Source: Owenia fusiformis (lineage: Eukaryota; Annelida; Polychaeta; Sabellida; Oweniidae). From it: a stretch of 64,000 nucleotides of DNA. The stretch is taken from contig CAIIXF020000012.1 in NCBI GenBank assembly GCA_903813345.2, positions 9,694,432 to 9,758,431 on the forward strand, given 5' to 3'. Positions within the stretch are counted from its first letter, which is position 1. Each line of letters opens with the position of its first letter. Below the pieces are notes generated by a model that was not told the origin of the DNA, ran no database searches, and worked only from the letters and a program-made list of their open reading frames with translations. Both the position numbers and the translations under genes were made by a program. This document shows positions 2,554-56,510 of this stretch, one piece after another.

Positions 2554-3265
2554 TATTTCGCCGATGTAAACTCGGCAGATTACAGCTAGCTTTCGTTCGG
2601 GACAGAGCTCCGTTCAATTTCATATTTTTATGTGAAGTTGGACTTAGTCGTTTTTCAAGGAAATATTTTTGGACTTTGACAATTTTCAGTAGAAAGTTGT
2701 TGGGACTTTGAATATTTCCCGAGGCAGATAGGAGATACATAGCTGCACTTCAGTTCAGTGGATGATAACTTGGACATCTACTTGTGGTGAAGGATACCTG
2801 AGAGGGAAGACTGCTACACCGTGATTCTGTAGATGATAACTTGGCCATCTACCCGTGTATTTGTGTAGAGGATACCTCAAGAGGGAATATTCAGTACCGT
2901 GTTTGGAGGCAGCATCAAGCCTATACTAGATTTCTGAGCTCTGTCAGTTCAATTTCATGAACACATGAAATTGGACTTTGCGTATTTTTGAGAGAGAAAT
3001 TATTGAACTTAGTCAATATTTGGAGAAACATTATTTTGGACTTTGTTTTTTTTGGAGAATAAATATTGAACTTAGAATATTTCAATATCAGTATAACTCA
3101 ACATTAACTGAACTTAGTTATTTTCAAGGGCACATATTTTGAGTTGTAATATTTTTGCCTATGTTGTTGTGTGCATGCTATATTTGTAGGTAGCCTGATT
3201 ATTTAATTGTGAAGGAAGTATTAGACGTTTTTGGACTTAGTAGTTGGAAGATTGTGATAGTTTAA

Positions 3266-4995
3266 CTACAACACATTGAGGAGGATCCAGGAGATAGTCG
3301 TTTCCAGACTTGATAATTTGACTTAGATTATTTCACATAATCAAAGTTGAATTATACTACAACACATTGAGGAGGATCCAGGAGATAGTCGTTTCCAGAC
3401 TTGATAATTTGACTTAGATTATTCCACATAATCAAAGTTGAATTATACTACAACACATTGAAGAGGATCCAGGAGATAGCCGTTTACAGAGCAATAGTTT
3501 GACTTAGATTATTTCACATAATCAAAGTTGAATTATACTACAACACATTGAAGAGGATCCAGGAGATAGCCGTTTACAGAGCAATAGTTTGACTTAGATT
3601 ATTTCACATAATCAAAGTTGAATTATACTACAACACATTGAAGAGGATCCAGGAGATAGCCGTTTACAGAGCAATAGTTTGACTTAGATTATTTCACATA
3701 ATCAAAGTTGAATTATACTACAACACATTGAGGAGGATCCAGGAGATAGTCGTTTCCAGACTTTATAATTTGACTTAGATTATTTTACATAATCAAAGTT
3801 GAATTATACTACAACACATTGAGGAGGATCCAGGAGATAGCCATTTACAGAGCCGATAGTTTGACTTAGATTATTTCGCATAATCAAAGTTGAATTATAC
3901 TACAACACAGTGAAGAGGATCCAGGAGATAGCCGTTTACAGAGCAATAGTTTGACTTAGATTATTTCACATAATCAAAGTTGAATTATACTACAACACAT
4001 TGAGGAGGATCCAGGAGATAGTCGTTTCCAGACTTTATAATTTGACTTAGATTATTTTACATAATCAAAGTTGAATTATACTACAACACATTGAGGAGGA
4101 TCCAGGAGATAGCCATTTACAGAGCCGATAGTTTGACTTAGATTATTTCGCATAATCAAAGTTGAATTATACTACAACACAGTGAGGAGGATCCAGGAGA
4201 TAGCCGTTTACAGAGCAATAGTTTGACTTAGATTATTTCACATAATCAAAGTTGAATTATACTACAACACATTGAGGAGGATTCAGGAGATAGTCGTTTC
4301 CAGACTTGATAGTTTGACTTAGATTATTTTACATAATCAAAGTTGAATTATACTACAACACAGTGAGGAGGATCCAGGAGATAGCCGTTTACAGAGCAAT
4401 AGTTTGACTTAGATTATTTCACATAATCAAAGTTGAATTATACTACAACACATTGAGGAGGATCCAGGAGATAGTCGTTTCCAGACTTTATAATTTGACT
4501 TAGATTATTTTGCATAATCAAAGTTGAATTATACTACAACACAGTGAGGAGGATCCAGGGGATAGCCATTTACAGAGCCGATAGTTTGACTTAGATTATT
4601 TCACATAATCAAAGTTGAATTATACTACAATACAGTGACAAGGATCCAGGAGATAGCCATTTACAGAGCCGATGGTTTGACTTAGATTATTTCATATAAT
4701 CAAAGTTGAATTATACTACAACACAGTGAGGAGGATCCAGGAGATAGCCATTTACAGAGCCGATAGTTTGACTTAGATTATTCCGCATAATCAAAGTTGA
4801 GTTATACTACAACACAGTGAGGAGGATCCAGGAGATAGCCATTTACAGAGCCGATAGTTTGACTTAGATTATTTCGCTTAATCAAAGTTGAATTATACTA
4901 TTACACAGTGACGAGGATCCAGGAGAGCTGATAGTTTGACTTGGATGATTTCACATCATCAAACTTGAATCATACTACACTATATAGAAGAGGAT
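3266..4995 (+). repeat. Tandem array of about 19 units of 90-91 bp inside the solo LTR
   Basis: The unit runs through TACAACACATTGAGGAGG, GATCCAGGAGATAG, then a TTTGACTTAGATTAT arm, a short loop and ATAATCAAAG, so each unit can fold as a small stem-loop. Units vary at a few positions (GTCGTTTCCAGACTT against GCCATTTACAGAGCC), showing at least two interleaved subtypes. The last units near 4915-4995 are degenerate. Confidence 0.9.
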
Positions 4996-33300: not shown

Positions 33301-36300
33301 CTCCCGAACATATTTCTCCACTCGCGAATATAGATTTGTGCTCGCGAACAATTTGTACCTAGTGCATCCGGGTATTCTAATTGCAAGCAACAACAGGAGT
33401 CTGGTTGCAGTTTACATTGACCCTTATACATGTACATGTGTATTTCAATAGAGTCATAAACTCTCCGCAGCTAATGAAAAGCCGTTTTTATTACCCAGCC
33501 CATTCACTGAAAATGTCAATGCGTGGAATCGCAAAGTAGTCCCAATGTTTTGTGTTTCTTGGAGCTTGAAGATGCTGTTATCTTCATAAATGGATATTCA
33601 TTAACATGCACGAAAAACTGGGAAATTATTTCTTCCGAATTACAAATAAAAACACTTCGTTGGAATTTAAGTTATGCGTAAGCTTAATAAAACGAATAAA
33701 GAGAATAAGACGTACCTGTACCTTAAGCTAGTTTCACACAAACAGCGATTTGATGGCGCTTTAAAGCAGCTTATAAAGCGGCACCAAAGCGTAACAAAGC
33801 GTAGAAAAGCTCGGAGTAAAGCGGAATATTCGGCAAGAGCGCTCTATACGTCTATAAGTGTGATATTCTCATAAATTGTCATCTATACGTAAGAATATCA
33901 CAGTTGTGGACATATAGAGCTACGCAATAAATGATGACGTAATCAAACGCGTCATAAGTAATACGTTATACGAGGATAATAAACATGCTATTAGTGAGTT
34001 ACGAATTCTTTCAATTATTCCGAACGTACCATTCACAACAGCCTGTCCAAGCCAGCGTTTCACTATCACCCCGACATCCTGCTTAATGAATATATCCATG
34101 GAAACCGCAACGGGCATCAGATTTGGCTTCACCGGGATGACGCGGAATCGAACTAAAAACAAAGTTGATAATTATTAAGCTGGTATAAACGTATCCAAAC
34201 AATACAATCTAGTAGAAACCTTTCTTATAATATATATGATATAAACCTGAAAATGAAACTTAAAGGTTAATAGATATGTTTTAGCGCAGCCAATTTCTGT
34301 AAATAATATTCTTGGATTGTGGGTACCTTCTAGTGACCTAGGAGGCAGATGTCTTTCATATTAAGTGCATTATCTCCAAGAAAAACAATTCTCATAAGTT
34401 ACTTGCACCAATTGCACTATCCTAAGTGCTCATTTTGTTGTCTAAAGATAACAAGATATGACGCTTTGTTTTGCTGAAGTCGCAATTTCGATAATGTTGA
34501 CCACAATCATGCTATGTATCTAAATGTAGCTGAACCGTGAGAACAGATGAATGATCTAAGGCGTTTGACAATCTAGTTTGTCTTAGTTTTGGTAATCATT
34601 TACATACTTACTAGGTATTAATTTATTCATTTATCTGTTTCTATGCGAGGATCCAACCGAATAAACATACAAACAAACAAGTAAATAAATAATATCAAGA
34701 CACTCAATTTGAACATTACGTGGCATAAATGACTAGGAATTAGTTCAGTAGTTTTGTCTCCTTTTCCCAAAAACTGCACCCATCTTGATATCATATTTTG
34801 GGATTAATACTGAAAAGGTATGATTAATAATTTTGCCACTGCTAAACAAGTAAACAAGTTTAGAAAGTCAATTGCATTCATTTGCGTTAGATATTGTTCT
34901 GATGACAATAAATCATCTTATTATCTTTGCGAAATCTTCTAAAACATGAAGGAAATCATAATCGCTCATTTTCATATCACGTTTTGACAATAAACAATAA
35001 TTATCAAAAGCAGCACGAGTGTTATTTTCTCTCGATTAAAGAAACACATCCCAAATTTACAAATAGTGGTTGTCCAAATCTGTTTATTCTCCATAAAACA
35101 TGTGAATAGATTCTTGCTCGTTATTTTCATTGGTAATCAGGTCTATTTTATGAAATTGTTATCATTAAAAATTCAGTTTTACTTTATTTCAATATCGCAG
35201 TGCAACTTGAAGACAATTAAAATTAATTTATATTTAAATTTGGAGAACAAAAAGTATCTACGAAACGATCAATTTTAGATTCTTTTGACCGCAAAATCTT
35301 GGCTTTCTGAATCGGGAAAATACGTTTTGTCACAAAAACGTGACTATGGGTCAAATATCTTGTGATCGACAGATATATTGTAAACAATGGAAGGTTTTCG
35401 GTGATATGACAGACAATTCAAAAGTTTTCAAAAATTGTTCAATAGCTTTAACTATTTGCACTAGAATTGTATCGTAGAAGTACTTGAAAACATGATTTTT
35501 AATACAGATTGTAAACATGGTAAAAACATTGCATAAAGACAAAAATGGGGGTAAAATATACAATTTGCTTCTGGGGAGATAATTGGGAATTAGACAGGGC
35601 TTTCATTATTTACACTGTGTGTTAAATGTTTCTCAAACTTATCGTATTTAGATATAATATTTATATTTAATTTTGTTCCTAAGTTACAACTTGCTAAAAT
35701 TGCAAACGTGAACAAGCGTGACCCAAAGGACGACCTCCGGTTACGAAACCTTTGATAAGGGGATGTTGAAGTTAAATTTGAATTAGATGTAGCTTATGAA
35801 TACAAGGAAAGCCAGCATTTATAAAAAGTACAGTTACTATTTTTATTTTAAAATTATAATTCTTAATCTGTAAAAAACTTACGAGTTCCCTTTCTGTTGT
35901 ACATTATCTTATCCGTCTCTATAAAAACAGATATCTGTTTGGTGTTGAACAACAAAGCGGTTTCATTCCAAAATATTGAGCCACCTGAACCAGCATCATA
36001 TTTCCCTTCGACCCTCAGAGAATAGTTTCCAGCGAGCACATACTTTGGAATCTGAAAATAGTTTCATTCCAAAAATATTGAGCCACCTGAACCAGCATCA
36101 TATTTCCCTTCGACCCTCAGAGAATAGTTTCCAGCGAGCACATACTTTGGAATCTGAAAATAGTTTCATTCCAAAAATATTAAGCCACCTGAACCAGCAT
36201 CATATTTTCCTTCGACCCTCAGAGCATAGTTTCCAGCGAGTACATACTTTGGAATCTGAAAATAGTTTCATTCCAAAATAGTGAGCCACCTGAACCAGCA

Positions 36301-39300
36301 TCATATTTCCCTTCGACCCTCAGAGAATAGTTTCCAGCGACCACATACTTTGGAATCGGAAAATAGTTTCATTCCAAAATATTGAGCCTCCTGAACCAGC
36401 ATCATATTTCCCTTCGACCCCCAGAGAATAGTTTCCAGCGAGCACATACTTTGGAATCTGAAAATAGTTTCATTCCAAAATAGTGAGCCTCCTAAACCAT
36501 CATCATATTTCCCTTCGACCCTCAGATAATAGTTTCCAGCTAGTTGTATACTTTGGAATCTGAAAATAGTTTCATTCGAAAATAGTGAGCCTCCTAAACC
36601 ATCATCATATTTCCCTTCGACCCTCAGAGAATAGTTTCCAGCGAGCACATACTTTGGAATCTGAAAATAGTTTCATTCCAAAATATTGAGCCTCCTAAAC
36701 CATCATCATATTTCCCTTCGACCCCCAGAGAATAGTTTCCAGCTAGTTGTATACTTTGGAATCTGAAAATAGTCTCATTCCAAAATATTGAGCCTCCTAA
36801 ACCATCATCATATTTCCCTCCGACCCCCAGAGAATAGTTTCCAGCTAGTTGTATACTTTGGAATCTGAAAATAGTCTCATTCCAAAATATTGAGCCTCCT
36901 AAACCATCATCATATTTCCCTTCGACCCTCAGAGCATAGTTTCCAGCTCGTAAATACTTTGGAATCTGAAAACCGTTCCATCCGTCCATAGATAACTTGC
37001 AATTGGCTTATATTAAATGCTTTATTGTACTAAAAATCCCTTTCGGGTAAGTGCACATCAAATAAACATGATAAAATAAAACTAAAACTATACATACAAT
37101 TATAATAACATACAATGCAAATTTTACATGGCATATAATGACAATAAAATGCGATTGACTGATCATTAGATATATAAGGGTTATGTACTGCGGTCCCTCG
37201 TGAGATACACATATTTCCCGCGGGATAAACACTGTATCCAAAACCGACCGTACATAACTGGTGTATATCATACTTGAGTGGGTTTGGGGTAGATATAACC
37301 TTTACCACCTTTTTCAAATGACAAGATAGACCTCTACTGTAAAAGCACAATTTATATTTAACATTTTCATAATATTCCTTCAGCTCAATACAATAGAATT
37401 GTAACATTTAAACTTTTTGAAAAATTTTAAACTTCTGAAATTTAAATTTTTAAAATTTTTAAACTTTTTTAAACTTTTGAAAGAATTCCCGGGAGCGGGA
37501 TGGATATATTATATCTGCCCGCATTTGGCCTAGAGCGGGACATATACAATATATCCTGCCCGCTCCTCAGATATTATATATATTCCCGGGTGATATCTAC
37601 CCCAAACCCACTCAAGTATGAAATACACAACTGTATATTGGCTTAAGATTTAAAACAGTAATCGGCTTTCTTTAACTTTTATAAATAAAAATCGAATTTT
37701 TAAGATTTATGGCATTATTTAAGCCTGAAGATAGTATTTAGTCAAAATTGATATAACGTATAATATGATATATTAGTATAGACAAGTAAATCAATTGTTT
37801 TAGTTATTTTAACATCGCACAGCATGTTAGAATAATGACAAGTATGTCACAGGTGACGCTGTAAGTAAAATATTTTAAACCTTTGATTACAAAATGATAA
37901 TGAAAGGTTGGTTTCACGCTGCGTAACATGACTGTTTATGAATGGTCTATGTTTGTTTTTCAGTACACAATTTAAACAAAGAAAGAAAAACAAAAAACTA
38001 AATAAATCTTAAAAATAAAAAAGATGTAACATTACCAGATGTTTCATAATTATGGCGGGGTGAACTTTGAAGTGAAATAACCAAGATAAATATTTCGTGA
38101 ATAACAAAAAATGAAGTCTGGGATGAAGATATCTCTTTTCATCCTCGAAAATATTCAACTGTAAACATTTTAGGACACACTTTTTAAATACACCTATCCA
38201 ATGGGGCTAATCCGAACTATTTTCAGGTATATTACTAGGATGCATGTTACTGTCACTGTATGTAGATTGAGTGAGAAATTGTGTAAACATATTAAGAGAG
38301 GATTCCATGTTAATGTACTTTACATGGTTTTCTTGGTGTTTCCGATTTAATTGAAGTAATGTTTTCTTTCTATGACCTTAGGAAAAAAGGGCTTTTAGAA
38401 GTCCATGACAAACATCCAAAACATGTCACATAGTCCTGAAGGATTCTCCGAAAGGACAAAAATTGACCTAAATAAATATGACTAAGTTCGTTTAATGAAT
38501 ATTGCAAAAATTAATATTTCAAGGAAGCAATTGAATTTAACGTTGTACAGTATATTTTTTAATTACCTGCAATTCTAACGTGCGTTCTCCCTCATTTTCC
38601 AGGTCCAAAGTCGCGCTTGAAATTTCCTCGCCCCTGTCGACATTGCGAATTGACGTAACGATGTGTAGAGGAACGTTATGTCTCTTCAGAAGAACAACGC
38701 TTATTCTGTAGATCATATTGGCCCGGAATCGCCTCGGAGCAAGAATCATGTAGGTTCTGTCAAATATTTATTTTACCAGGTTTTAAAAGTGAAAGTAAAC
38801 AAATAAATAAAACAAACAAATATACATAGCATAAAATTAAACATGGACAAAAACATCACACAAATATTTAAAAAGTAATAGTTTTTAGTTCGCATGCGCA
38901 TTGACTTAGGCTAGATACGCCTTATGCGCAGTGACAATTTATTTTCCCGATATTTTAAGGTATTTATACAACAGAAATTAGGCTGACGTGTATAATTTCA
39001 TTCTAGAATTTACTTATTTTCACAGACTGAAGAGTTTTTCTGGCTTTAGAAGTTTCAGAATTTAAATTTCAAATTTGAAATTTAGTGACCATGGAGACAG
39101 ACTGTCTCCGAAACATCTAAAGAAAGAAAAAACTTTTCAGTTTATGATTACAAGAAAGATTACATTCTAAAATAAAACAACGATTTCAAGATTTTGAATT
39201 TATTTAACGAAATAAAGTATCAAATTGTATACTTACCCATAATTGTCATTCGTATATTTGTATGCAAGTGTATTTTGATTTGCAACATCTCCCGTTACCA

Positions 39301-41396: not shown

Positions 41397-44300
41397 ATGC
41401 TTGATGAGTTACTTCTAGCCAGTGCAGTGGTATTTTTAACATATCACATATACAAGTACATGGTCAGGAAAACCGTACACCTTCCAGGACCCAGAGGCTT
41501 ACCAATCATTGGAAACATCCATAGCTTTATTCAAGATGGAGGCCCAGTTTGGCAAGTTCAAAAATGGGCAAATAAATATGGTGATACATTCAAAATAAGC
41601 ATTCTTGGTGAAGAAATTGTCATACTGAGTGATTATGATAGTATCTATGAGGCACTGGTAGAAAGATCAAATGATTTTGCTGGAAGGCCTTTCGAAAAAT
41701 CATATGCATTGAAAAAATTGTTTTCTCATGGCATATTCACACAGGATTTTACTCAAAGGTTTGAAGCAAACAAGAAACTAGGATTACGTGGACTCAAACA
41801 GCATGGGGATGGAATCGGTAGAATTGTGAACCTCTCAAATGAAAACATAAGCCAGACAGTAAAGGAGTTTAAAGAAGAAAATGGTCAACCTTTCCAACCT
41901 CATGACAAACTTCAAAATCTGTTATGCCGGATCATTATATGTGTGGTAGGTATAACTTAATGAATCTAAATTGTCAGTTGAACAAGATTTTATATCAAAA
42001 GAATCATAATAAGACAAAATACAGGGTGGTCCAAAAAAAGTGAACCCCTGCAACGGGCCATATTTCCCTTATTATTTGCAGGAATTCCTTCATATTTTCT
42101 CATGTTGTAGAGAAAGGTCTAAAATTTATGTTGGTACCACACATTTTTCTTAGTCTTGAAATTTGCAGAAATTATAAGCCCTAACCAAACATTACTGAAA
42201 TGGATAAAATGTGATTTTCAATATCCGCGATTCTTCAACCCTTCAACACCCTTCCCCTGACATTTTTTAAGCTGCACTGTTAAAGAACTAATATTTTCTG
42301 ACTGTGTTCAATTTTAAATCCTGCACATTATGGATTAAAACTAGCATCCTACCTTTGTTAGTTACAAAGTTATTGTGATCCAAAGAAATGTTCTAAGCTT
42401 CCATAGACGAAAAATATTTTATGAACGCCCTGTACCCCTATATGATCTTGGAATGTCAATATCTTCATAAATCATGGACCAATTCTAATGAAATATGACT
42501 CAAAACATTGAATATTGGATTTTCTTTTGATATTTTAAAGCTTATTGATGAAAGGTTTCTTAGATACCCGGTCAAAAGGGGCAACTTCCTTCCACAATAG
42601 CCCCCCTCTAACTGTTTGTGTAAGTAACATACGCCTCAGCTGTTGAGTGGTAAAAACTGCTTCAAAACGATCAATGAACGTGTGAAATGTGTTTTTTGCT
42701 TAAAAGTGTCCCTTTTGTCATATGGTAGGGTATTAAGCTTGTATCTCTAACTGAAAGCTGTTGAAAGATCATCCAATGTGTTTCAACTATTTCCGTGAAT
42801 CACATTGGTAAAATTTTGCACAATATCTTATTTTCAGACATGTTTGTTAACTCTTGTAATTTCTTCAAAATTTAAGACTGCGAATAAATTATGGCATCAA
42901 CCAAAATTGTAGACCCTTCTCTACAATATGTGATAGTTTGAGCCCATTCATGAAACTATTAAGGAAATTATAGCCTGTTGCAGGGGTCCACTTTTTTTGG
43001 ACCACCCTGTAATTTGCAGATGGAAATATATTCCAAAGGGAAACTATTTTTCATTATTTCTTCAAAATGAGGCAGTCATTCATAATATATACATTCATAT
43101 ACTACTACACAAGACTGTAAAACTTGTCAAATTCAAATGCCATCGGGACCAGCTAAAAGAGTTTGGATAAGGAGGTTCCACATTTCCAGGCTTAAGCATT
43201 CATAATATTCTGCATTTTGATGAAATGTGAACAAATTCTCAATAAATCTTTATGGTACTATATTGACCACACGGTATTCCAATAATTTGAAATAATTATG
43301 ATTCAAATGAATTCATTAAAAATGTTAAAAAGACATTATGAGTGAGACCATTCAACTGTTCAATGTTTTTCCAAATCTTTGGATATAAAAACCAGAACAA
43401 CGGCAACGCCAAAGCGTAGCGAATCCCAACAAACAGAAATGGCTGGCATTTTTACAAACGAAATATATAGCAAATATCATGAAATAACACACATAAGAAA
43501 GGCCACCATTTTCAAAATGGTTGCTCACTAGCCAAGTTGTCATCAGAAGAAGTAATATGCTTTTTTTAGTATTCACATACCAAATATGCACAAAATCACT
43601 TCACTACTTTTCAAGTAAAATACTTTAAAATGGTGGCCATTTTTCAAAATGGCCGCCTCTACCAAAAGTGTCATTAGACAGTGTGCCGTGCTTATAGATA
43701 TTCACATACCAAATATGAACAAAATCGCTCCACCACTTTTCAAGTTACAGTAAAATATGTTAAAATGGCGGGAAATCAGCAAACAGTACGTCACTGACGA
43801 AGGATGTAGTCACATCCGAAAGCTATGAAAAAGTAAAGAAATTTCTCAGGTTAGTTAGAGGAACCTTAAATTATTATTAATGCTATTACAGTTTTACATA
43901 TTGCAACTAAATTACTGTAAATTTCTACCTCCATAGGGTATATGTGTACAAAATATGAACGAAATCGGGCCGACGGTATTTGAGTAATTGTCTGGACGGA
44001 CGGACAGCAGACAGACGGACGTACGTACGTACAGACGGACGGACGGAGGCGTTCCCTATATCCCTCCGAACTTCGTTCGATGGGATAATAAAACAGTGAA
44101 AATATTTGAGCAATTTTGTATGAAACATGTGATATCTTATGAAAAGTGTTCATATCACACATGTTAAATGTTCAAATATGACTGTTCAGTGTTCAAATCA
44201 GGAGGTGTTCACATTTTAAGGTTTCTTTAAAATGGGAGTCAATGAGAGGAAAAAATGGGACTGAAAAAAGTGTTCAAATTGGGATAAGCTCGGATTAACT

Positions 44301-47300
44301 GGGTGTTCAAATATATACAGGTTTCACTGTATGTTATTTAAACAAATATATAACAGCATTCCTTTGATTGCAATATAGCAATGTATACATTGCTTCTCCT
44401 AATTTTCTGCAAGAAAATCCTTTAATTTGATGTTGAATCCATGGTTCATTAGTTGAAGCTTTTCATTACCAATTTCAAATATATCTGAACTTTTCTTTGT
44501 GCCTTCACTTCATCATGGAGAAATCTATGATATAAGCTGAATTGGGGGGAAAAAGACAGGGTGATAGGCTAGGCCTAGGTATGTACATTAACCTCTTGAC
44601 TACCTGGAGTGACGAGATATCTTGTCACCTCAGAAATTACCTTGAAACCAAGGGTGACGGTCAAATCTGTCACAAAATTTTTCACTAAAATTGCTCTTAT
44701 AACAATTTCCATCCAATTTAAACAAAACTTGTTTTAGAATTTGTAGAAATGATCTCCGCCGTCTGATTTTACTAAGTTGAGCATCTAAAGTTGTATATGA
44801 ATGTAGTTAAATATCAAAAAGTGGCAAAAATGAAAAATTATCTGGTTTCAACCGATTTTAGAGACTGGGATTCAAGAGGTTAAAGGCACATTAGGCTTCA
44901 GAGACAATAAAACTGTTCAACATTTTTTTCATTGCTTAAGAGTTGATGTCATGGTCTAACTCATTTCCACTGATTTACGAGTTTTTATGACTTTTTGAAT
45001 CTCACGCCATTGTCAGCTGCTACGCCCCCTAACTTGCCCTGGGAGCATATTTTGTTCAGTGTAATTAAAACTCTGTACATGGTCAGTAGTTCGGTCAATT
45101 TTTTTTCAATCATTTCTTAATTTTTCTGTCTATAATCGATCAATAAACTAGTTTAGGAACAAAGGAACGTTTCAACTTTAGTTAATTACGATGCCTAGAT
45201 AGACAATCAATGCCTAGACACCCAGGACTGCAGCCAATATGGGATAGGATAGTAAATATCCCACCCGAAAGTGACATTGAATCAGATGATGAATAGAATC
45301 TTGGGGAAGCTTTTTCATCCTCAGAGTCAGAGGACGATTCTGACTCAAATTCAATTTTCTCATGTTTTTCAGGAGTATCTTCAACAGAAAGGACTTAAAA
45401 CTATACATGAAAGTCCATTCAAAGTAGTCTATTGAACCTTGAAAAGCCATATATACAACAACTTTCAGCTCATCTTTACTTAGTAGAATTTTTTTTATGA
45501 ATTTGTCTGATATCTGATTGAATATGGTATATATACTTGTGTTGATTGTTTAATTATTACATAATAGATTGGAGATACAATATGTCAAAGTTGTCTGATC
45601 ATGTCCCAAAAGCAATATTCTGTCTGTCACCAAAAATACTTTGAATTAACAATTTTTTTAAGCTGCTTGGTGAAAATACGCCCTATAAAGAGGATGACGG
45701 AGAATTCGCTAGGAAATGGTTAGAGGACTACGATGTGAATTTTAGAGGGCCATTTTTCTATCTTATAGAGATGTTCCCATGGACACGTTACTTTGGCAAC
45801 CCTGTTTATTCAACATTGAATGAAATGATAAAATGCCGTAATAAAACCTTTACTGAGTGGATTGAAAGGTTCAAACATTATAAACAGGTACAATACTTAT
45901 GATATAATATGTACAATAAATAAATATGTAAACTATGTGCATTGATATTTTGGTAAAACTTTATCTTTTACTCCATTAATTTCCCAAGTGTTTCATTGCA
46001 TGTTAAAAAACATGGTGCCCTTTAATGGGTTGGATTCTGGGTGACATTTCAACGTGTGTTATAGGAAAGTGGTGAGAGGACACTCATCGCAGAGTTATTG
46101 GCCGCTAAGGAGGAGGGTACAATAACAGATGATGGTATTTTTGGAATCATGACTGATACTTTCGTTGCAGGTATAAATCCTTTTCATAGTTAGACTAGTT
46201 CTTTAGTGCATTTTTCCACTCTGCAGACCCTGGATTTGGTTTTAACAGGAATCTTCCAATTTACTATCAATTTAAATAGTTCTTGATTATGTTTCATTAG
46301 CTAATAACTTTGATCTATTTTGTGTAACCATAGTACAACTGAAGCAGCTTGATTCAAGAGAAAATTTCAGACCTGCAGAGATGGAACGAGATATGATCAC
46401 ATTGAATTAAATGGTCAAAGAAAAGGAAATATAAGATCTGCAGAGGATGGATGTGTCAATTTAATATTAATCATATACATATACATTGGGTATTTGGTTT
46501 TCATTTTAATAAAAACTGGGAAGAAGAATTTTAAGAATTCAACTTAAGATTCTGAAATATCAATAGTTCTTTTTCACTTTTATGATTTGTGGAAAATAGT
46601 ATATATCAAATGATAAATTCATATTTCATATTTTTACACTTTATAGCGGACCTTTAAAACATACAAAGAAATGTGTATTAGCAGAGCTACAATAATCAAT
46701 CAAAGTTCTAGAAGTGTCAAAGCCCTATAACCAATTATTTATCAGGAATTTTCACAACACGTACAACCACATCCGGATTCCTACTTGCAATGATGAACTT
46801 TCCTGACATTCAAAGTAAGCTCCATGAGGAAATTGGTAACAGGACAACTCATCCCTAAGACAACTCATCCCAAGACAACTCATCCCCAAGACATCTCATC
46901 TCAAGACAACTCATCCCAAGACATCTCATCCCAAGACAACTCATCCCAAGACATCTCATCCCAAGACAACTCATCCCAAGACATCTCATCCCAAGACAAC
47001 TCATCCCACTTTTGAAAGAATGAAAAATATTTAGAGATTTTAGCAGTTAGCACACTACTCATGGAATATTTTTGTTTTTTTATAATATACATTTTTCATG
47101 CTGTATTTTAAACTGACACATTTCATATTTTGTCATGCTGTATTTACTTAATATTTTTGTATTTTGTAGTTGGTTTAGCCTAGTTTTAGTAAATTGTTGT
47201 CGACTGATTGGGATCAAAGTTAAACATGTTCAAATTAATATATACTTTGATAATTAAATCAAAGATCATCAAAGGTGTAGGATTAACTCAGTTAGAATGT

Positions 47301-50300
47301 ATTATCCAAGGTGCTATCAGAATAATTCTCTCAGATTAATTCAGTCTTTGTTTAAAAATATTTTGGCCTAATCCTAAATAAGATTGCCAATTTCAAACTT
47401 TCAGATTTATGATGATTAAATTTGGAAATAATGTCTATGACTTTTATGTTCAATTCTATATTCTCAAATATATTAAGAATAACCCAGAATTAATCAAAAT
47501 AGCGGTATAAAACATAACTTTCAAGTACCATTTAAAACGCTAAAAGTCAGTATTAAAAATTGAGTGTGTAATCAAAAATCACTTTGTAATCATAAAAATT
47601 AAAAAGGGATATATACAGGGTGGTCCAAAAAAAATTGGAACATTTGTTAATTGAACGCAAAACCTTTATTTTTCTTCTAAAATGTACCAAACTTTTACTG
47701 AGCATAGTTCAATCACTTATTTATCTGATGTAAAGTTTATAGGTGAAATCCACAAAGTTAATGCATTAAACTAGTCAATGTTTGATAGGACCCCCTTTTC
47801 TTAAATATACACTTGTCAATTCCGCGGCTACTTTTTCAAGTATTATTTATTTCAAAGCTTTAATGCACATGTTAATTGCTATAAATATTTTACAAAATCA
47901 TATTCAGTTGACTAAGTGTATTTACATCTGGGGTTTGCCAGAAAAATATTGTGTTAACTTAAACTTAAACAATACCCAAAATGATCATTTTCATTAAAGA
48001 GGAGAAGAAGGAACATGTCAGAGGTGAGCGATTGCATAACCCTCACAGCTACTCAAGTGACAAAAGCATTCTTCCCAATTTTCAGTAAAGGCAAAACTGA
48101 CCAGTTATTCACATTAAAAACCAACGCTAAGCACATATACAGTGTATAATAAACATATAATATACCATTTGTGTTCTCTCTATGATACTGATAGACATAT
48201 TGATATTTCCAATGAATATTATTCATATCAGAACAATAAAGGGGAGGGGGATTCATTTACCAGTCAAATCAGACTGCCCTGGCCTCTTTCTTGGGAATAT
48301 TCAATCAGTAATACACCCAACAATAGCCATCGAAATATGCTTGATACTCATGAATTTGGGTTAAAAAAATGTTGAATATGTTACTAGATTTGATCTTCCA
48401 AGGCAAACAAATAGAAAGTTTGATCAAGCTAAATTTTTTAATTAAGATGGCTTTGACAAAACAAACGAACAGCAAACTAATTGAATATTTACAAATCTGA
48501 GTCCCAGGCTTCAAATTGTAAGTCAGGAGAAGAGGAGTCATATCAAATATCGACTAGTTTAATGCATTAACTTTGTTGTTTTCACCTATAAACTTTACAT
48601 CAGATAAATAAGTGACTGAACTATGCTCAGTAAAAGTTTGGTACATTTGAGAAGAAAAATAAAGGTTTTGCGTTCAATTAACAAATGTTCCAATTTTTTT
48701 TGGATCACCCTGTATATAATATAGAGGACAAAATAATTTATCAATTATACAAGTGGGATGAGTTGTCTTGGGATGAGATGTCTTGGGATGAGATGTCTTG
48801 GGATGAGTTGTCTTTGGATGAGTTGTCTTGGGATGAGATGTCTTGGGATGAGTTGTCTTGGGGATGACTTGTCTTGGGATGAGTTGTCTTGGGGATGACT
48901 TGTCTTGGGATGAGTTGTCTTGGGATGAGTTGTCTAGAAACCAGGAAATTGATCATGTGATTGGTAAAGAACAGCTTCCGGAGCTATCAGATCGTGAGAA
49001 GATGCCATATATGGAAGCAACAATTCTTGAAACGCTGCGTTACATGTCGATGATCCCAACAATCTTACATAAAACAACTTGTGATACCAATATAGCTGGT
49101 TGTGATCTCCCAAAGAATACACAGGTAAATACATTCATGTCTATTTTGATTATTTTTCATATACAGTACATTGTATTGTTCATTTAATTTTGCTTAATTT
49201 GTCATCTGCTTTAATCAGGCATTTATGAAAAATTCACCAAACCCTGCCAAAATCTGATTTAATATAAATCTGATTAAGTCTAATACTTGGTCTAAGTTTT
49301 ATAAAACTTGTATCAGTAATAATTAAGTATGGGCCAATACCACAAAATAATTTACCAACCAAATTTAAATGCAATCTTCTGGCATCTTTTAGTTTGGTAA
49401 AACAAGATACACAATAATAAATATCCCACTCTAAAAAGCAAAATGGCTGTAATGTAATTTACAAAGCATGCCAAAACTTATCATGTATAATTTTCTAATT
49501 GAACTAATAAGCAGTTTTCCAGGCAGTTGATAATGCAACGACCAAGTAGCAAGCTGTTACTACAGTACAGATGTAAAGTTTGTAAAAACACAACAAGAAA
49601 TAAGGCATTAACATGACAAAATGTTACAACTTGCCATTTGTGACAGACAACGACTGCAAAAAACAGATGCAAACTGCCAAAAACCATCCACAAAAAGTTG
49701 AAGGGGACATCAATACCAAAAAACAGGGATGATTGCGCCAATTTCATTTAATGAATCACAAAACCAAGTTTCTCATATTTTACACAGGGTCATGGTTGGC
49801 TGAATCATTTTCCAACCTGATTATAAAGACAAAATGGATAAACTTCCATATGGGGAATTTAAAATTTCATCATTTTCACCAACAAAGGGGTTCATTTGTA
49901 TCAAAATATTTTACCCAAATGTTAATAGTAACATCTGGTTACTGAAAAGTCACTCATGAGCAAATATATCCAGAAGCTCCAATAATCTAGCAAGAATTCC
50001 TCACTTCAGCATCCAGCAATTAGGATGTTATCTGGTGAATTTCATAGTCTTGGTTGCATTGTGTTTATGTGCTAAAGTGCTCAATTACTCAACTAAACTC
50101 AATAGAGAAAAAGGTCTAAATAACTGTTGCCTGTAAGCAACTTCAATCAAATACATTGTCTTACAGGTTTGGATGAACTTATATGGCATGCACCATGATA
50201 AACGTTACTTCAAACACAACCCAGATTCTTTTGATCCTTCACGATTCCTGGACTCTGATGGCCATCTAGTTCCACATGAGGAAAGAAAAGCGTAAGTCAA

Positions 50301-51325
50301 ATTATAATCTAAATTATGTAGATATCTTGATATGGGCCATGATAAGCATTGCTTCAAACACAACCCAGATTCCTTTGATCCTACAAGATTCCTGGACTCT
50401 AATGGCAATCTAGTTCCACATGAAGAAAGAAAAGCGTCAGTTGGATTCTGACCTAAACAATTGAGATTGACCACTGTATAAAGGACGATTCTCGGTTTGG
50501 AGAACGAAGTTCATCAATCTAAATGAGCATTATCCCTGCTTCGGACAAATTTGATTTTTTTTACATAATATAGATTTGAATGTCTTCTTTTGAATAGTCA
50601 TAATTTAATTTGGGTAATATTTCTAGATTTTTCGCAAAAAACTATTAGCGCAGTACACTGATGAACTTCTTTCCCCAAATCGAGACTTGTATTTTATTGA
50701 ATCGGTCTATTTGAGCATTATCCCTGCTTCAGGATTTAATTGTCCTCTTTTGAATATTCATAGTTTAATTTGGGTAATATTTCTATATTTTTCATGAAAT
50801 TTTTTTTAGCCCAGGAGGCTGTTCTCCAAACCGAGAATCGTCCTTTCAATTCAATCTGACTATTATTTTTCAATGACAAATGTGTGAAGTGTTTTGTGTC
50901 CCATAATTCAAAATCCGAGCAATCATAATAACAATGTCTTTATGTTCAGTAATATTTTGGCATGATTATAAACATTGCTATGTGTGGAAACTTTTAACAC
51001 ATCTTTTTGGGACATTGATATGAAAAATGTTGGCATTAGTGATCACAAATTGTTTTTTCATGCAGAAATACTGTTTTGCCATGTGTGACAAAATGAAATG
51101 AATTTTTATTACAGGGTGCTGGCATTTGGAGCAGGTAGGCGTGTCTGTATGGGAGAAGTTCTTGCAAAAACCAGGGTGTTTCTCCTCTTTACACAGCTGT
51201 TACAAAACTTTTACTTCGAGCAAGCCGACCCTGAAAATCCTGTCCTGTTTGATATGAGGAAATTTATAGCTGGGCCAGATACTTTAATCGCACCTAAATT
51301 TAAGATAGTAGCGAAACCTCGTTAG
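41397..51325 (+). CDS. Cytochrome P450, CYP2 clan, interrupted by a transposon-like insertion
   Basis: Exons 41397-41945, 45663-45887, 46065-46170, 46746-46835 continued at 48952-49124, 50167-50291 and 51115-51325. If the insertion and one target-site copy are left out, these total 1479 bases, 492 residues plus stop, the usual CYP2 length. Visible features: an N-terminal membrane anchor (LLLASAVVFLTYHIY), the LPGPRGLPIIGN hinge, an I-helix AGIFTTRTT, the K-helix ETLR at about 49029, DPSRFLD, and the haem-binding FGAGRRVCMG with Cys at 51146-51148. Family function: NADPH-dependent monooxygenation at the endoplasmic reticulum; substrate unknown. Phases match at every other junction. No GT-AG choice across 46836-48951 that I tried restores the frame, so this allele may be inactive. 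The I-helix lacks the usual acidic residue before Thr. Confidence 0.9.
42022..43009. mobile_element. Mariner-type MITE with long TIRs, 988 bp
   Basis: CAGGGTGGTCCAAAAAAAGT at 42022 and its complement ending GGACCACCCTG at 43009, TA on both sides, with related arms extending about 150 bases inward (CCCCTGCAAC, TTGTAGAGAA.GGTCTA). No transposase could be read inside. It lies in intron 1 of the P450. Confidence 0.88.
43991..44048. repeat. GACG/ACGT tetranucleotide repeat
   Basis: GGACGGACGG, ACAGACGG and (ACGT)4-like units, followed by CCCTATATCCCTCCGAACTT and CGTTCGATGGG. It probably belongs to the end of a dispersed repeat, but I see only this one copy. Confidence 0.8.
44588..44883. mobile_element. 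piggyBac-type MITE with TTAA target site
   Basis: TTAA at 44588-44591 is followed by CCTCTTGACTACC, and GGGATTCAAGAGG is followed by TTAA at 44880-44883. Eight terminal bases are inverted exactly. The subterminal GTGACGAGATATCTTGTCAC palindrome is also typical of piggyBac-like MITEs. Non-coding. Confidence 0.75.
46843..47010 (+). repeat. 15-bp minisatellite, left arm
   Basis: About 11 units of GACAACTCATCCCAA alternating with the variant GACATCTCATCCCAA. Since 15 is a multiple of 3, it reads as DNSSQ/DISSQ repeats, which is not evidence of a protein. Confidence 0.93.
47616..48712. mobile_element. Nested mariner-type MITE with about 165-bp TIRs
   Basis: CAGGGTGGTCCAAAAAAAAT at 47616 and its complement ending GGATCACCCTG at 48712, TA on both sides. 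The arms (47616-47785 and 48545-48712) are nearly identical, so the element is young. No transposase frame. It has the same CAGGGTGGTCC tips as the 42022-43009 element but different inner arms. Confidence 0.9.
48754..48934 (-). repeat. 15-bp minisatellite, right arm (inverted)
   Basis: About 12 units of the same 15-bp motif in reverse orientation (GGGATGAGTTGTCTT and GGGATGAGATGTCTT), some units 16 bases (TTGGGGATGACTTG). Ends 17 bases before the P450 reading frame resumes. Confidence 0.93.
49125..50166. other. P450 intron, nothing recognised
   Basis: Intron with donor GTAAAT at 49125 and acceptor CTTACAG before 50167. No repeat or second gene is seen. Confidence 0.5.
50331..50447 (+). pseudogene. 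Tandem copy of P450 exon 50167-50291
   Basis: The last three quarters of the exon are repeated about 145 bases downstream: HDKHCFKHNPDSFDPTRFLD, then SNGNLVPHEERKA, with a GTCAGT donor in place of GTAAGT. The first codons and the acceptor are missing. Including it would duplicate the segment before the haem loop, so it is probably not spliced in. Confidence 0.85.
50480..50846. mobile_element. MITE with AAAGGACGATTCTCGG termini, copy 2
   Basis: Same inverted ends and modules as 13658-14051, 367 bp, here in the last P450 intron and in the opposite orientation. The ends are identical to copy 1 over at least 26 bases. Confidence 0.88.
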
Positions 51326-54172: not shown

Positions 54173-54904
54173 CAGCGAGCTGAGAGCGCTCAGCAGATTA
54201 CAGCTAGCTTTCGTTCGGGACAGAGCTCCGTTCAATTTCATATTTTTATGTGAAGTTGGACTTAGTCATTTTTCAAGGAAATATTTTTGAACTTTGACAA
54301 TTTTCAGTAGAAAGTTGTTGGGACTTTGAATATTTCCCGAGGCAGATAGGAGATACATAGCTGCACTTCAGTTCAGTGGATGATAACTTGGACATCTACT
54401 TGTGATGAAGGATACCTGAGAGGGAAGACTGCTTCACCGTGATTCTGTAGATGATAACTTGGCCATCTACCCGTGTATTTGTGTAGAGGATACCTCAAGA
54501 GGGAATATTCAGTACCGTGTTTGGAGGCAGCATCAAGCCTATACTAGATTTCTGAGCTCTGTCAGTTCAATTTCATGAACACATGAAATTGGACTTTGCG
54601 TATTTTTGAGATAGAAATTATTGAACTTAGTCGATATTTGGAGAAACATTATTTTGGACTTTTTTTTTTTTTTTTGAGAATAAATATTGAACTTAGAAAA
54701 TTTCAATATCAGTATAACTCAACATTAACTGAACTTAGTTATTTTCAAGGGCACATATTTTGACTTGTAATATTTTTGCCTATGTTGTTGTGCGCATGCT
54801 ATATTTTTAGGTAGGCTGATTACTTAATTGTGAAGGAAGTTTGTGTACTTAGCAGTTGATGCCATATAAGACGTTCGTAAACTTTGTCAAGAGCCGATAG
54901 TTTG

Positions 54905-56510
54905 ACTTTGATTATTTCATATAATTAAAGTTGAATTATCCTACAACACAGTGAAGAGGATCCAAGAGATAGCCATTTACAGGGCCGATAGTTTGTCTTT
55001 GATTATTTCATATAATTAAAGTTGAATTATCCTACAACACAGTGAAGAGGATCCAAGAGATAGCCATTTACAGAGCCGATAGTTTGACTTTGATTATTTC
55101 ATATAATTAAAGTTGAATTATCCTACAACACAGTGAGGAGGATCCCGGAGATAGCCATTTACAGAGCCGATAGTTTGACTTTGATTATTTCATATAATTA
55201 AAGTTGAATTATCCTACAACACAGTGAGGAGGATCCAAGAGATAGCCATTTACAGAGCCGATAGTTTGACTTTGATTATTTCATATAATTAAAGTTGAAT
55301 TATCCTACAACACAGTGAGGAGGATCCAAGAGATAGCCATTTACAGAGCCGATAGTTTGACTTTGATTATTTCATATAATTAAAGTTGAATTATCCTACA
55401 ACACAGTGAAGAGGATCCAAGAGATAGCCATTTACAGAGCCGATAGTTTGACTTTGATTATTTCATATAATTAAAGTTGAATTATCCTACAACACAGTGA
55501 AGAGGATCCAAGAGATAGCCATTTACAGAGCCGATAGTTTGACTTTGATTATTTCATATAATTAAAGTTGAATTATCCTACAACACAGTGAGGAGGATCC
55601 CGGAGATAGCCATTTACAGAGCCGATAGTTTGACTTTGATTATTTCATATAATTAAAGTTGAATTATCCTACAACACAGTGAAGAGGATCCAAGAGATAG
55701 CCATTTACAGAGCCGATAGTTTGACTTTGATTATTTCATATAATTAAAGTTGAATTATCCTACAACACAGTGAGGAGGATCCCGGAGATAGCCATTTACA
55801 GAGCCGATAGTTTGACTTTGATTATTTCATATAATTAAAGTTGAATTATCCTACAACACAGTGAGGAGGATCCAAGAGATAGCCATTTACAGAGCCGATA
55901 GTTTGACTTTGATTATTTCATATAATTAAAGTTGAATTATCCTACAACACAGTGAGGAGGATCCAAGAGATAGCCATTTACAGAGCCGATAGTTTGACTT
56001 TGATTATTTCATATAATTAAAGTTGAATTATCCTACAACACAGTGAAGAGGATCCAAGAGATAGCCATTTACAGAGCCGATAGTTTGACTTTGATTATTT
56101 CATATAATTAAAGTTGAATTATCCTACAACACAGTGAAGAGGATCCAAGAGATAGCTATTTACAGAGCCGATAGTTTGACTTTGATTATTTCATATAATT
56201 AAAGTTGAATTATCCTACAACACAGTGAAGAGGATCCAAGAGATAGCCATTTACAGAGCCGATAGTTTGACTTTGATTATTTCATATAATTAAAGTTGAA
56301 TTATCCTACAACACAGTGAGGAGGATCCCGGAGATAGCCATTTACAGAGCCGATAGTTTGACTTTGATTATTTCATATAATTAAAGTTGAATTATCCTAC
56401 AACACAGTGAAGAGGATCCAGGAGATAGCCATTTACAGAGCCGATAGTTTGACTTTGATTATTTCATATAATTAAAGGTGAATTATCCTACAACACAGTG
56501 GAGGATACTA
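54905..56510 (+). repeat. Tandem array of about 17-18 units of 91 bp inside the 5' LTR
   Basis: Very homogeneous units with GAAGAGGATCCAAGAGATAG (or GGATCCCGGAGATAG), CCATTTACAGAGCCGATAG and a CTTTGATTAT-TTCAT-ATAATTAAAG stem-loop. The array belongs to the same repeat family as 3266-4995 but is more homogeneous, as expected from recent amplification. Confidence 0.93.

What the first reader, a model, noticed from the sequence alone, without database searches (positions are those of the whole stretch)
46827..48951. Coding exon of a P450 split by an element whose inverted ends are 15-bp minisatellites
Seen: an 8-9 bp direct repeat (AGGAAATTG) flanks a 2.1 kb insert; joining the flanks gives a continuous P450 frame (LHEEI then DHVIG) and an exact 492-residue protein. 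The insert's ends are inverted arrays of GACAACTCATCCCAA, about 11 and 12 units. Inference: a transposon family whose terminal repeats are expandable minisatellites, inserted recently. GT at its left tip and AG at its right tip make it look like an intron, but GT-AG removal leaves 7 extra bases and a stop. It is either a null allele or a half-made intron.
Basis: partly seen in the sequence, partly recalled or inferred. Interest (0 to 1): 0.8.

Follow-up and report, generated by a model that had tools for sequence, protein, structure and literature searches.

The report
Jumping gene split a P450 exon
A short jumping gene whose two ends are made of many copies of a 15-letter repeat has recently landed inside a cytochrome P450 enzyme gene and most likely broken it; it belongs to a known kind of mobile DNA (Mutator/Foldback), and sister copies as well as relatives with transposase genes lie in the same genome.

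Summary
Confirmed. A 2,108-bp element (46835-48942) with an 8-bp target duplication (AGGAAATT) sits in a P450 exon. Its ends are inverted arrays of 11 and 12 units of GACAACTCATCCCAA. Eight paralogous exons in the genome (six in one cluster on the same contig) are uninterrupted. The element is a real family: 39 copies with both exact tips pair left-to-right (no left-left or right-right pair), and 32 of 39 have perfect 8-bp (27) or 9-bp (5) duplications. A copy on another large contig differs at 5 of 2,108 positions and carries the same nested Tc1/mariner-like MITE, so movement is recent. Related elements with similar tips and array units carry MULE transposase frames (FLYWCH + MULE in the two tested), so this is a non-autonomous Mutator-superfamily, Foldback-type element. 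Very similar elements are published (Tm1 in root-knot nematodes, Muta1/Muta5 in Aedes). No transposase copy with exactly these tips was found. The allele is most likely null: unspliced translation stops after seven codons of insert. One GT-AG choice would keep the frame, but its acceptor is poor and no RNA was available. New member of a known kind.

The parts
46827..46834 (.). left copy of the 8-bp target site duplication AGGAAATT
   Evidence: the same stretch is uninterrupted in paralogs L058-L061
46835..48942 (+). non-autonomous Mutator/Foldback-type element, 2108 bp; left tip GGTAACAGG, right tip (reverse complement) GGTTTCTAG
   Evidence: 38 further copies with both exact tips
46843..47008 (+). 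left inverted array, 11 units of GACAACTCATCCCAA
48754..48935 (-). right inverted array, 12 units
47616..48712 (.). nested Tc1/mariner-like MITE (CAGGG...CCCTG, 185-bp inverted ends, TA duplication), present in the sister copy too
   Evidence: inverted repeat I1; multi-copy in the genome; ends placed; empty site seen by eye in L009 and L017; same nested copy in L018
48943..48950 (.). right copy of the target site duplication AGGAAATT
41397..51325 (+). P450 gene interrupted by the element; exons 41397-41942 (or 41945), 45663-45887, 46065-46170, 46746-46834 + 48951-49124 (split exon), 50167-50291, 51115-51325
   Evidence: Pfam p450; exon ends inferred from sequence, no RNA
46856..46858 (+). first in-frame stop met if the insert is not spliced (after ...LHEEIGNRTTHP, 329 residues)
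   Evidence: open frame ends at 46855

Best explanation
The insert is a non-autonomous DNA transposon of the Mutator (MULE) superfamily, Foldback type. Its ends consist of a short asymmetric tip (GGTAACAGG on one side, GGTTTCTAG on the other) followed by an array of 15-bp units. Inferred mechanism: a FLYWCH/MULE transposase made elsewhere in the genome by a related family binds the repeated units, pairs one left-type with one right-type end, cuts at the tips and inserts the element by a staggered cut, leaving an 8-bp (sometimes 9-bp) duplication. Shown: family, tips, duplications, transposase frames in elements with similar ends, uninterrupted site in paralogs, recent movement. Inferred: which transposase acts, that the units are its binding sites, and that unit number changes by slippage or unequal exchange. 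In the P450 gene it breaks the exon at the HEEI/DHVIG stretch and most likely makes a null allele.
For: 61 exact left tips and 62 exact right tips. 39 left-right inverted pairs under 7 kb, 0 left-left, 0 right-right. Of these 39 copies 27 have perfect 8-bp and 5 perfect 9-bp duplications. MULE domain search: 8 matches in the genome; protein search with one of them: 37 matches. Of 12 MULE loci fetched (L050-L057, L064-L067), 6 carry inverted arrays of CAACTC-type units on both sides of the frames, 5 of these with an 8-bp duplication at GGT or GGC tips. L067 has units GACAACTCATCCCCTA and tips GGTAACCGG and GGCTTACGG; L051 has tips GGTAACCGG and GGTTTCCGG, Pfam MULE E=2.5e-10 and FLYWCH E=3.5e-6. 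Paralog L058 aligns at 96-97% and breaks exactly at 46835/48943. L018 copy: 5 of 2108 differences.
Against: No copy with exactly this family's tips was found to carry a transposase; the longest exact-tip copy (L022, 6.2 kb) is enlarged by another repeat with long inverted arms. 7 of 39 copies lack a perfect duplication. 6 of 12 MULE loci fetched lack CAACTC-type arrays (L050, which has arrays of another sequence; L052; L055-L057; L064), so the association is not universal. 22 of 61 left and 23 of 62 right exact tips are in no pair under 7 kb. Expression and splicing of the gene are unknown.
Confidence: 0.93

Rival explanations
1. Nascent intron: the element is spliced out of the transcript and the P450 still works.
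For: GT at the left tip (46836) and a near-consensus donor AAA|GTAAGC at 46815; one acceptor, AG at 48851-48852 in the right array, gives an open frame of 524 or 517 aa with these donors.
Against: Only 1 of 15 AGs in 48719-48960 gives an open frame (2 donors tried, all GTs in 46780-47030); the pyrimidine fraction before it is 0.40 against 0.60-0.67 for the gene's own five inferred acceptors; the product would have 26 or 33 residues more than the 491-aa form. Paralogs have no intron here; another P450 subfamily of the genome has an intron a few codons downstream, not at this point.
Confidence: 0.05
2. hAT-superfamily MITE (8-bp duplications).
For: 27 of 39 copies have 8-bp duplications.
Against: 5 of 39 have perfect 9-bp duplications; tips GGT...ACC are unlike recalled hAT tips; MULE frames lie in elements with similar ends. 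hAT transposases were not searched for.
Confidence: 0.02
3. The interrupted gene is an assembly or haplotype artefact, e.g. a misplaced allele of the 9.29-Mb paralog.
For: The paralog L058 is 96-97% identical over about 3.2 kb including introns, which could be allelic divergence in a heterozygous animal.
Against: The breakpoints are base-exact with a target duplication; the two genes lie about 450 kb apart on opposite strands of one large contig; the same 2108-bp element recurs on another contig with other flanks.
Confidence: 0.03

Closest known systems
Tm1 (Mutator/Foldback, Meloidogyne; PMC3169594, passages seen)
   Same: Inverted ends of tandem ~14-bp units in variable number, asymmetric 7-bp motifs at the two tips, 8-10 bp duplications, many MITE-like copies, FLYWCH + MULE transposase in a single putatively autonomous copy, nested elements in some copies.
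   Different: Different unit and tip sequences and host; mostly 9-bp duplications (here mostly 8); its authors call it inactive, whereas this family has a near-identical copy pair.
Muta1 and Muta5 (Aedes aegypti MULEs; PMC5225508, passages seen)
   Same: 8- or 9-bp duplications; ends with 9 copies of a 12-bp (Muta1) or 15-bp (Muta5) subterminal repeat; many non-autonomous derivatives, for Muta1 with variable unit number; Muta1 classed as type 2 Foldback.
   Different: Sequences and host differ; Muta1 was shown to transpose in yeast, this family was not tested.
Tetris (Drosophila virilis Foldback; PMC4079207, passages seen)
   Same: Foldback ends with tandem repeats, 8-10 bp duplications, no transposase in the copies, proposed Mutator.
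   Different: About 220-bp units; its authors found no autonomous copy, here related transposase-bearing families were found.
TU elements of sea urchin
   Same: Recalled, not tested: modular inverted ends with short tandem repeats and 8-bp duplications; the Tetris paper lists the sea urchin among hosts of Foldback elements.
   Different: No TU sequence was available for comparison.

Membership tests
Mutator (MULE) superfamily | target site duplication of 8-11 bp (range as in PMC6446971, passage) | tested here: met
   27 of 39 perfect 8 bp, 5 of 39 perfect 9 bp, 7 of 39 neither
Mutator (MULE) superfamily | long terminal inverted repeats | tested here: met
   154-nt ungapped inverted match at 93%; arrays reach 175 and 190 bp from the tips
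Mutator (MULE) superfamily | MULE-domain transposase in the element or its autonomous partner | tested here: inconclusive
   not in this element nor seen in exact-tip copies; present in related elements with similar tips and units, e.g. L051, L066, L067; that they move this family is inferred
Foldback-type MULE | terminal repeats built of short tandem units in variable number | tested here: met
   left 1 to at least 45 units, right 2-25 units over 39 copies, 24 distinct combinations by motif count
Phantom group of MULEs | FLYWCH zinc finger plus MULE domain in the transposase | tested here: met
   for the related elements only: P0001 (L051) and P0002 (L054), Pfam; P0003 (L050) has MULE only
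Phantom group of MULEs | placement in the Phantom clade of a transposase tree | not tested
   no reference transposases were at hand
Rehavkus | 9-bp duplication, PHD finger (table in PMC6446971) | tested here: inconclusive
   duplications mostly 8 bp; Pfam listed no PHD finger at E up to 0.001, though the N-terminus of P0001 is Cys-rich
hAT superfamily | duplication length fixed at 8 bp (recalled) | tested here: not met
   5 of 39 copies with perfect 9-bp duplications
Introner | element is spliced out as an intron at many sites | not testable with these tools
   no RNA data; one weak in-frame option at this site
Tc1/mariner-type MITE (nested element) | TA duplication, CAGGG...CCCTG inverted ends, many copies | tested here: met
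   link to a transposase not tested

The most novel reading that the evidence does not exclude
The element is a nascent intron in an animal gene: splicing from the tip donor (46836) to an acceptor supplied by the right minisatellite (AG at 48851-48852) keeps the P450 in frame. Array expansion by 15-bp units, which keep the frame, could multiply such acceptors, although in the present array only one AG works. A Foldback MULE would then be a source of introns whose splice sites are copied by its own terminal repeats.
Probability: 0.04. Interest if true: 0.7.

Novelty: new member of a known kind. Interest (0 to 1): 0.33.

Why it matters
It is a base-exact, recent example of a Foldback-type MULE breaking a coding exon in a multi-copy P450 group, with filled site, uninterrupted paralogs, a sister copy and possible transposase sources in one genome. 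The ends follow a strict left/right rule (39 to 0 among exact-tip pairs under 7 kb), and unit spacing is mostly kept next to the tips while unit number varies further in, which makes the role of the repeated units testable. Related transposase-bearing families with shifted unit sequences would let one follow how transposase and terminal minisatellite change together.

Tried and rejected
Exact-tip copies were looked at for an autonomous member: the 6.2-kb copy L022 holds a second repeat with its own long inverted arms, and its longest frame between stops is 155 codons. MULE loci L055, L056, L057 and L064 show no CAACTC-type arrays in the 8 kb fetched; L052 gave no inverted 14-mers, contains a run of N and was not pursued. 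L050 has a MULE frame between inverted 15-bp arrays of another sequence; its tips were not resolved. Of 11 loci fetched for family B and other tip variants, 7 were scanned for a duplication; L040 and L043 gave a clear one, L046 a possible one, L041 and L045 none, and L039 and L047 only recurrences inside repeats. Homogenisation of the two arms within a copy was tested and not seen: within-copy identity 0.924 against 0.922 between copies, 418 of 2000 permutations at or above the observed value, 37 of 39 copies used (the two under 600 bp left out). An old intron at this site was rejected: eight paralogous exons are continuous, and in the two loci of other P450 subfamilies inspected the exon starts a few codons downstream. 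A frame-1 translation of L065 was full of stops and was not used. The array and tip words gave 4 listings, none of a transposon paper by title (texts not read). The one left-right pair 47 kb apart was dropped. The species was not identified.

Full report
Observation. The window copy is as described and can be bounded to the base. AGGAAATT stands at 46827-46834 and again at 48943-48950; the element between is 2108 bp, 46835-48942. A G follows the left copy as the element's first base and the right copy as host sequence, so 8 or 9 bp can be read here; most of the family has 8. The inverted arrays are 10.9 and 12.0 units of GACAACTCATCCCAA. Joined flanks give a P450 frame of 491 or 492 aa, Pfam p450 E=1.1e-92 over residues 30-469; the best solved relatives are CYP17- and CYP2-type enzymes.

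Empty site. The exon-4 peptide was searched in the whole genome (144 matches). Six close paralogs lie on the same contig at C12:9.235-9.290 Mb, about 450 kb from the window gene and on the opposite strand, and two more on C1; these eight match residues 1-88 without a break, at 73-98% identity. In the six fetched (L058-L063) nucleotide alignments stop at window 46835 and resume at 48943 (L058-L061) or 48940 (L062, L063); in L058-L061 the stretch GAGGAAATTGAT is read uninterrupted. L058 is 96.2% and 97.1% identical to the window in the two main stretches. Thus the insertion is derived. In two loci of other P450 subfamilies an exon starts nearby, but a few codons downstream.

Family. The tip pattern GGTNNCNNGACAACTCATCCC (up to 1 mismatch) has 358 matches in 498 Mb and 0 for the reversed control; only the first 100 places were listed. 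Two related families share it: family A, to which the window copy belongs (tips GGTAACAGG and GGTTTCTAG), and family B (GGTAACCGG with GGCTTACGG or GGTTTACGG; 16-bp units), where L040 and L043 show 8-bp duplications. For family A there are 61 exact left and 62 exact right tips; 40 left-right pairs were formed, one of them 47 kb apart and dropped. Among pairs under 7 kb there are 39 left-right and no left-left or right-right. Of the 39 copies, 27 have perfect 8-bp and 5 perfect 9-bp duplications; 7 do not: L009 matches 7 of 8 and L010 6 of 8, L018 has a 9-bp repeat ATCTGTAAA set off by six extra bases at the left tip, and L003, L011, L024, L032 show none.

Arrays. By a motif count that reads the outer 700 bp, unit numbers range from 1 to at least 45 on the left (median 11) and 2 to 25 on the right (median 10). 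Next to the tips the spacing is mostly kept: 16, 15, 16 on the left in 34 of 39, and 15, 15, 16, 15, 16 on the right in 26 of 39. Shared descent could explain this as well as function. Left arms resemble other left arms (0.960) more than right arms (0.922), and the two arms of one copy are no more alike than arms of different copies, so there is no sign of arm-to-arm conversion.

Recency. The copy at C6:19547023-19549130 (L018) has the same length, the same unit numbers and the same nested MITE, with 5 differences in 2108 positions (0.24%) and other flanks. The nested element (47616-48712) has 185-bp inverted ends, is multi-copy, and L009 and L017 read by eye as the site before its insertion, with one TA fewer. 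So the composite moved after it was nested. Against the 3-4% divergence of L058 from the window gene the insertion is young, if rates are alike.

Transposase. A search for the MULE domain gave 8 matches, a search with protein P0001 37. I fetched 12 loci. Six have inverted arrays of CAACTC-type units around the frames: L051, L053, L054, L065, L066, L067. Five have 8-bp duplications at GGT or GGC tips: GTTTGAAA, GTACATAG, GTTAATTT, GTATATGC, TAGTCTAG; none was found for L065. L067 and L065 have units with the same 13-base core, GACAACTCATCCC, as the window element. P0001 (L051) and P0002 (L054) hit Pfam MULE and FLYWCH, and four motifs that I recall as typical of MULE catalytic domains are present in P0001, three of the four patterns in P0002 and in P0003. 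The MULE frames of L067 contain a stop, and those of L065 and L066 are spread over several frames. No exact-tip family A copy with a transposase was seen; trans-mobilisation by a related family is inferred.

Effect on the gene. Without splicing, translation stops after 329 residues (...LHEEIGNRTTHP), seven codons into the insert and before the heme-binding region. Of 15 AGs near the right end only one (48851-48852) gives an open frame, with donors 46815 or 46836; it is pyrimidine-poor. A null allele is the likely outcome; intact paralogs would soften the effect (inference).

Comparison. The Tm1 paper (PMC3169594, passages) describes composite inverted ends with variable ~14-bp units, asymmetric tip motifs and 8-10 bp duplications in 45 of 53 elements, with a FLYWCH/MULE transposase. 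The Muta1 paper (PMC5225508, passages) describes 8- or 9-bp duplications and 12- or 15-bp subterminal units, and mostly precise excision in yeast when the duplication is present. The Tetris paper (PMC4079207, passages; [quoted passage not shown] the MULE survey (PMC6446971, passages) puts Muta with Phantom and lists mini-satellites in some Phantom and Rehavkus elements. The window element therefore belongs to a known kind. Its own sequence words were not met in a transposon paper of the open-licence library, which says little.

Noticed in passing
42022-43009: A second element with the same CAGGGTGGTCCAAAAAAA ends as the nested MITE, in inverted orientation, lies in the first intron of the P450 gene.
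   Followed up: no
50337-50441: Partial duplicate of P450 exon 5 just downstream of it; the paralogs match it too, so it is probably older than the insertion.
   Followed up: partly
3265-4926 and 54890-56500: Two long arrays of related 91-bp units about 50 kb apart, about 88% identical, same orientation.
   Followed up: no
35960-36972: Tandem array of 102-bp units, 10 copies, 94% matches.
   Followed up: no
L050:2637-6951: A MULE frame lies between inverted 15-bp arrays of an unrelated unit (CTTCCCATTTCGCCC), suggesting that minisatellite ends of several kinds exist among MULEs of this genome.
   Followed up: partly
L064:5158-5405, L065:2293-2570, L067:1782-2274: The same 31-bp minisatellite (reverse-complemented in L064) lies just upstream of the MULE frames in three loci, although L064 shows no CAACTC-type end arrays in the stretch fetched.
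   Followed up: no
L018 left end: The sister copy has six extra bases (GGTATC), resembling the tip itself, between its 9-bp duplication and the tip.
   Followed up: no
L035: One copy has at least 45 units in its left array against a median of 11.
   Followed up: no
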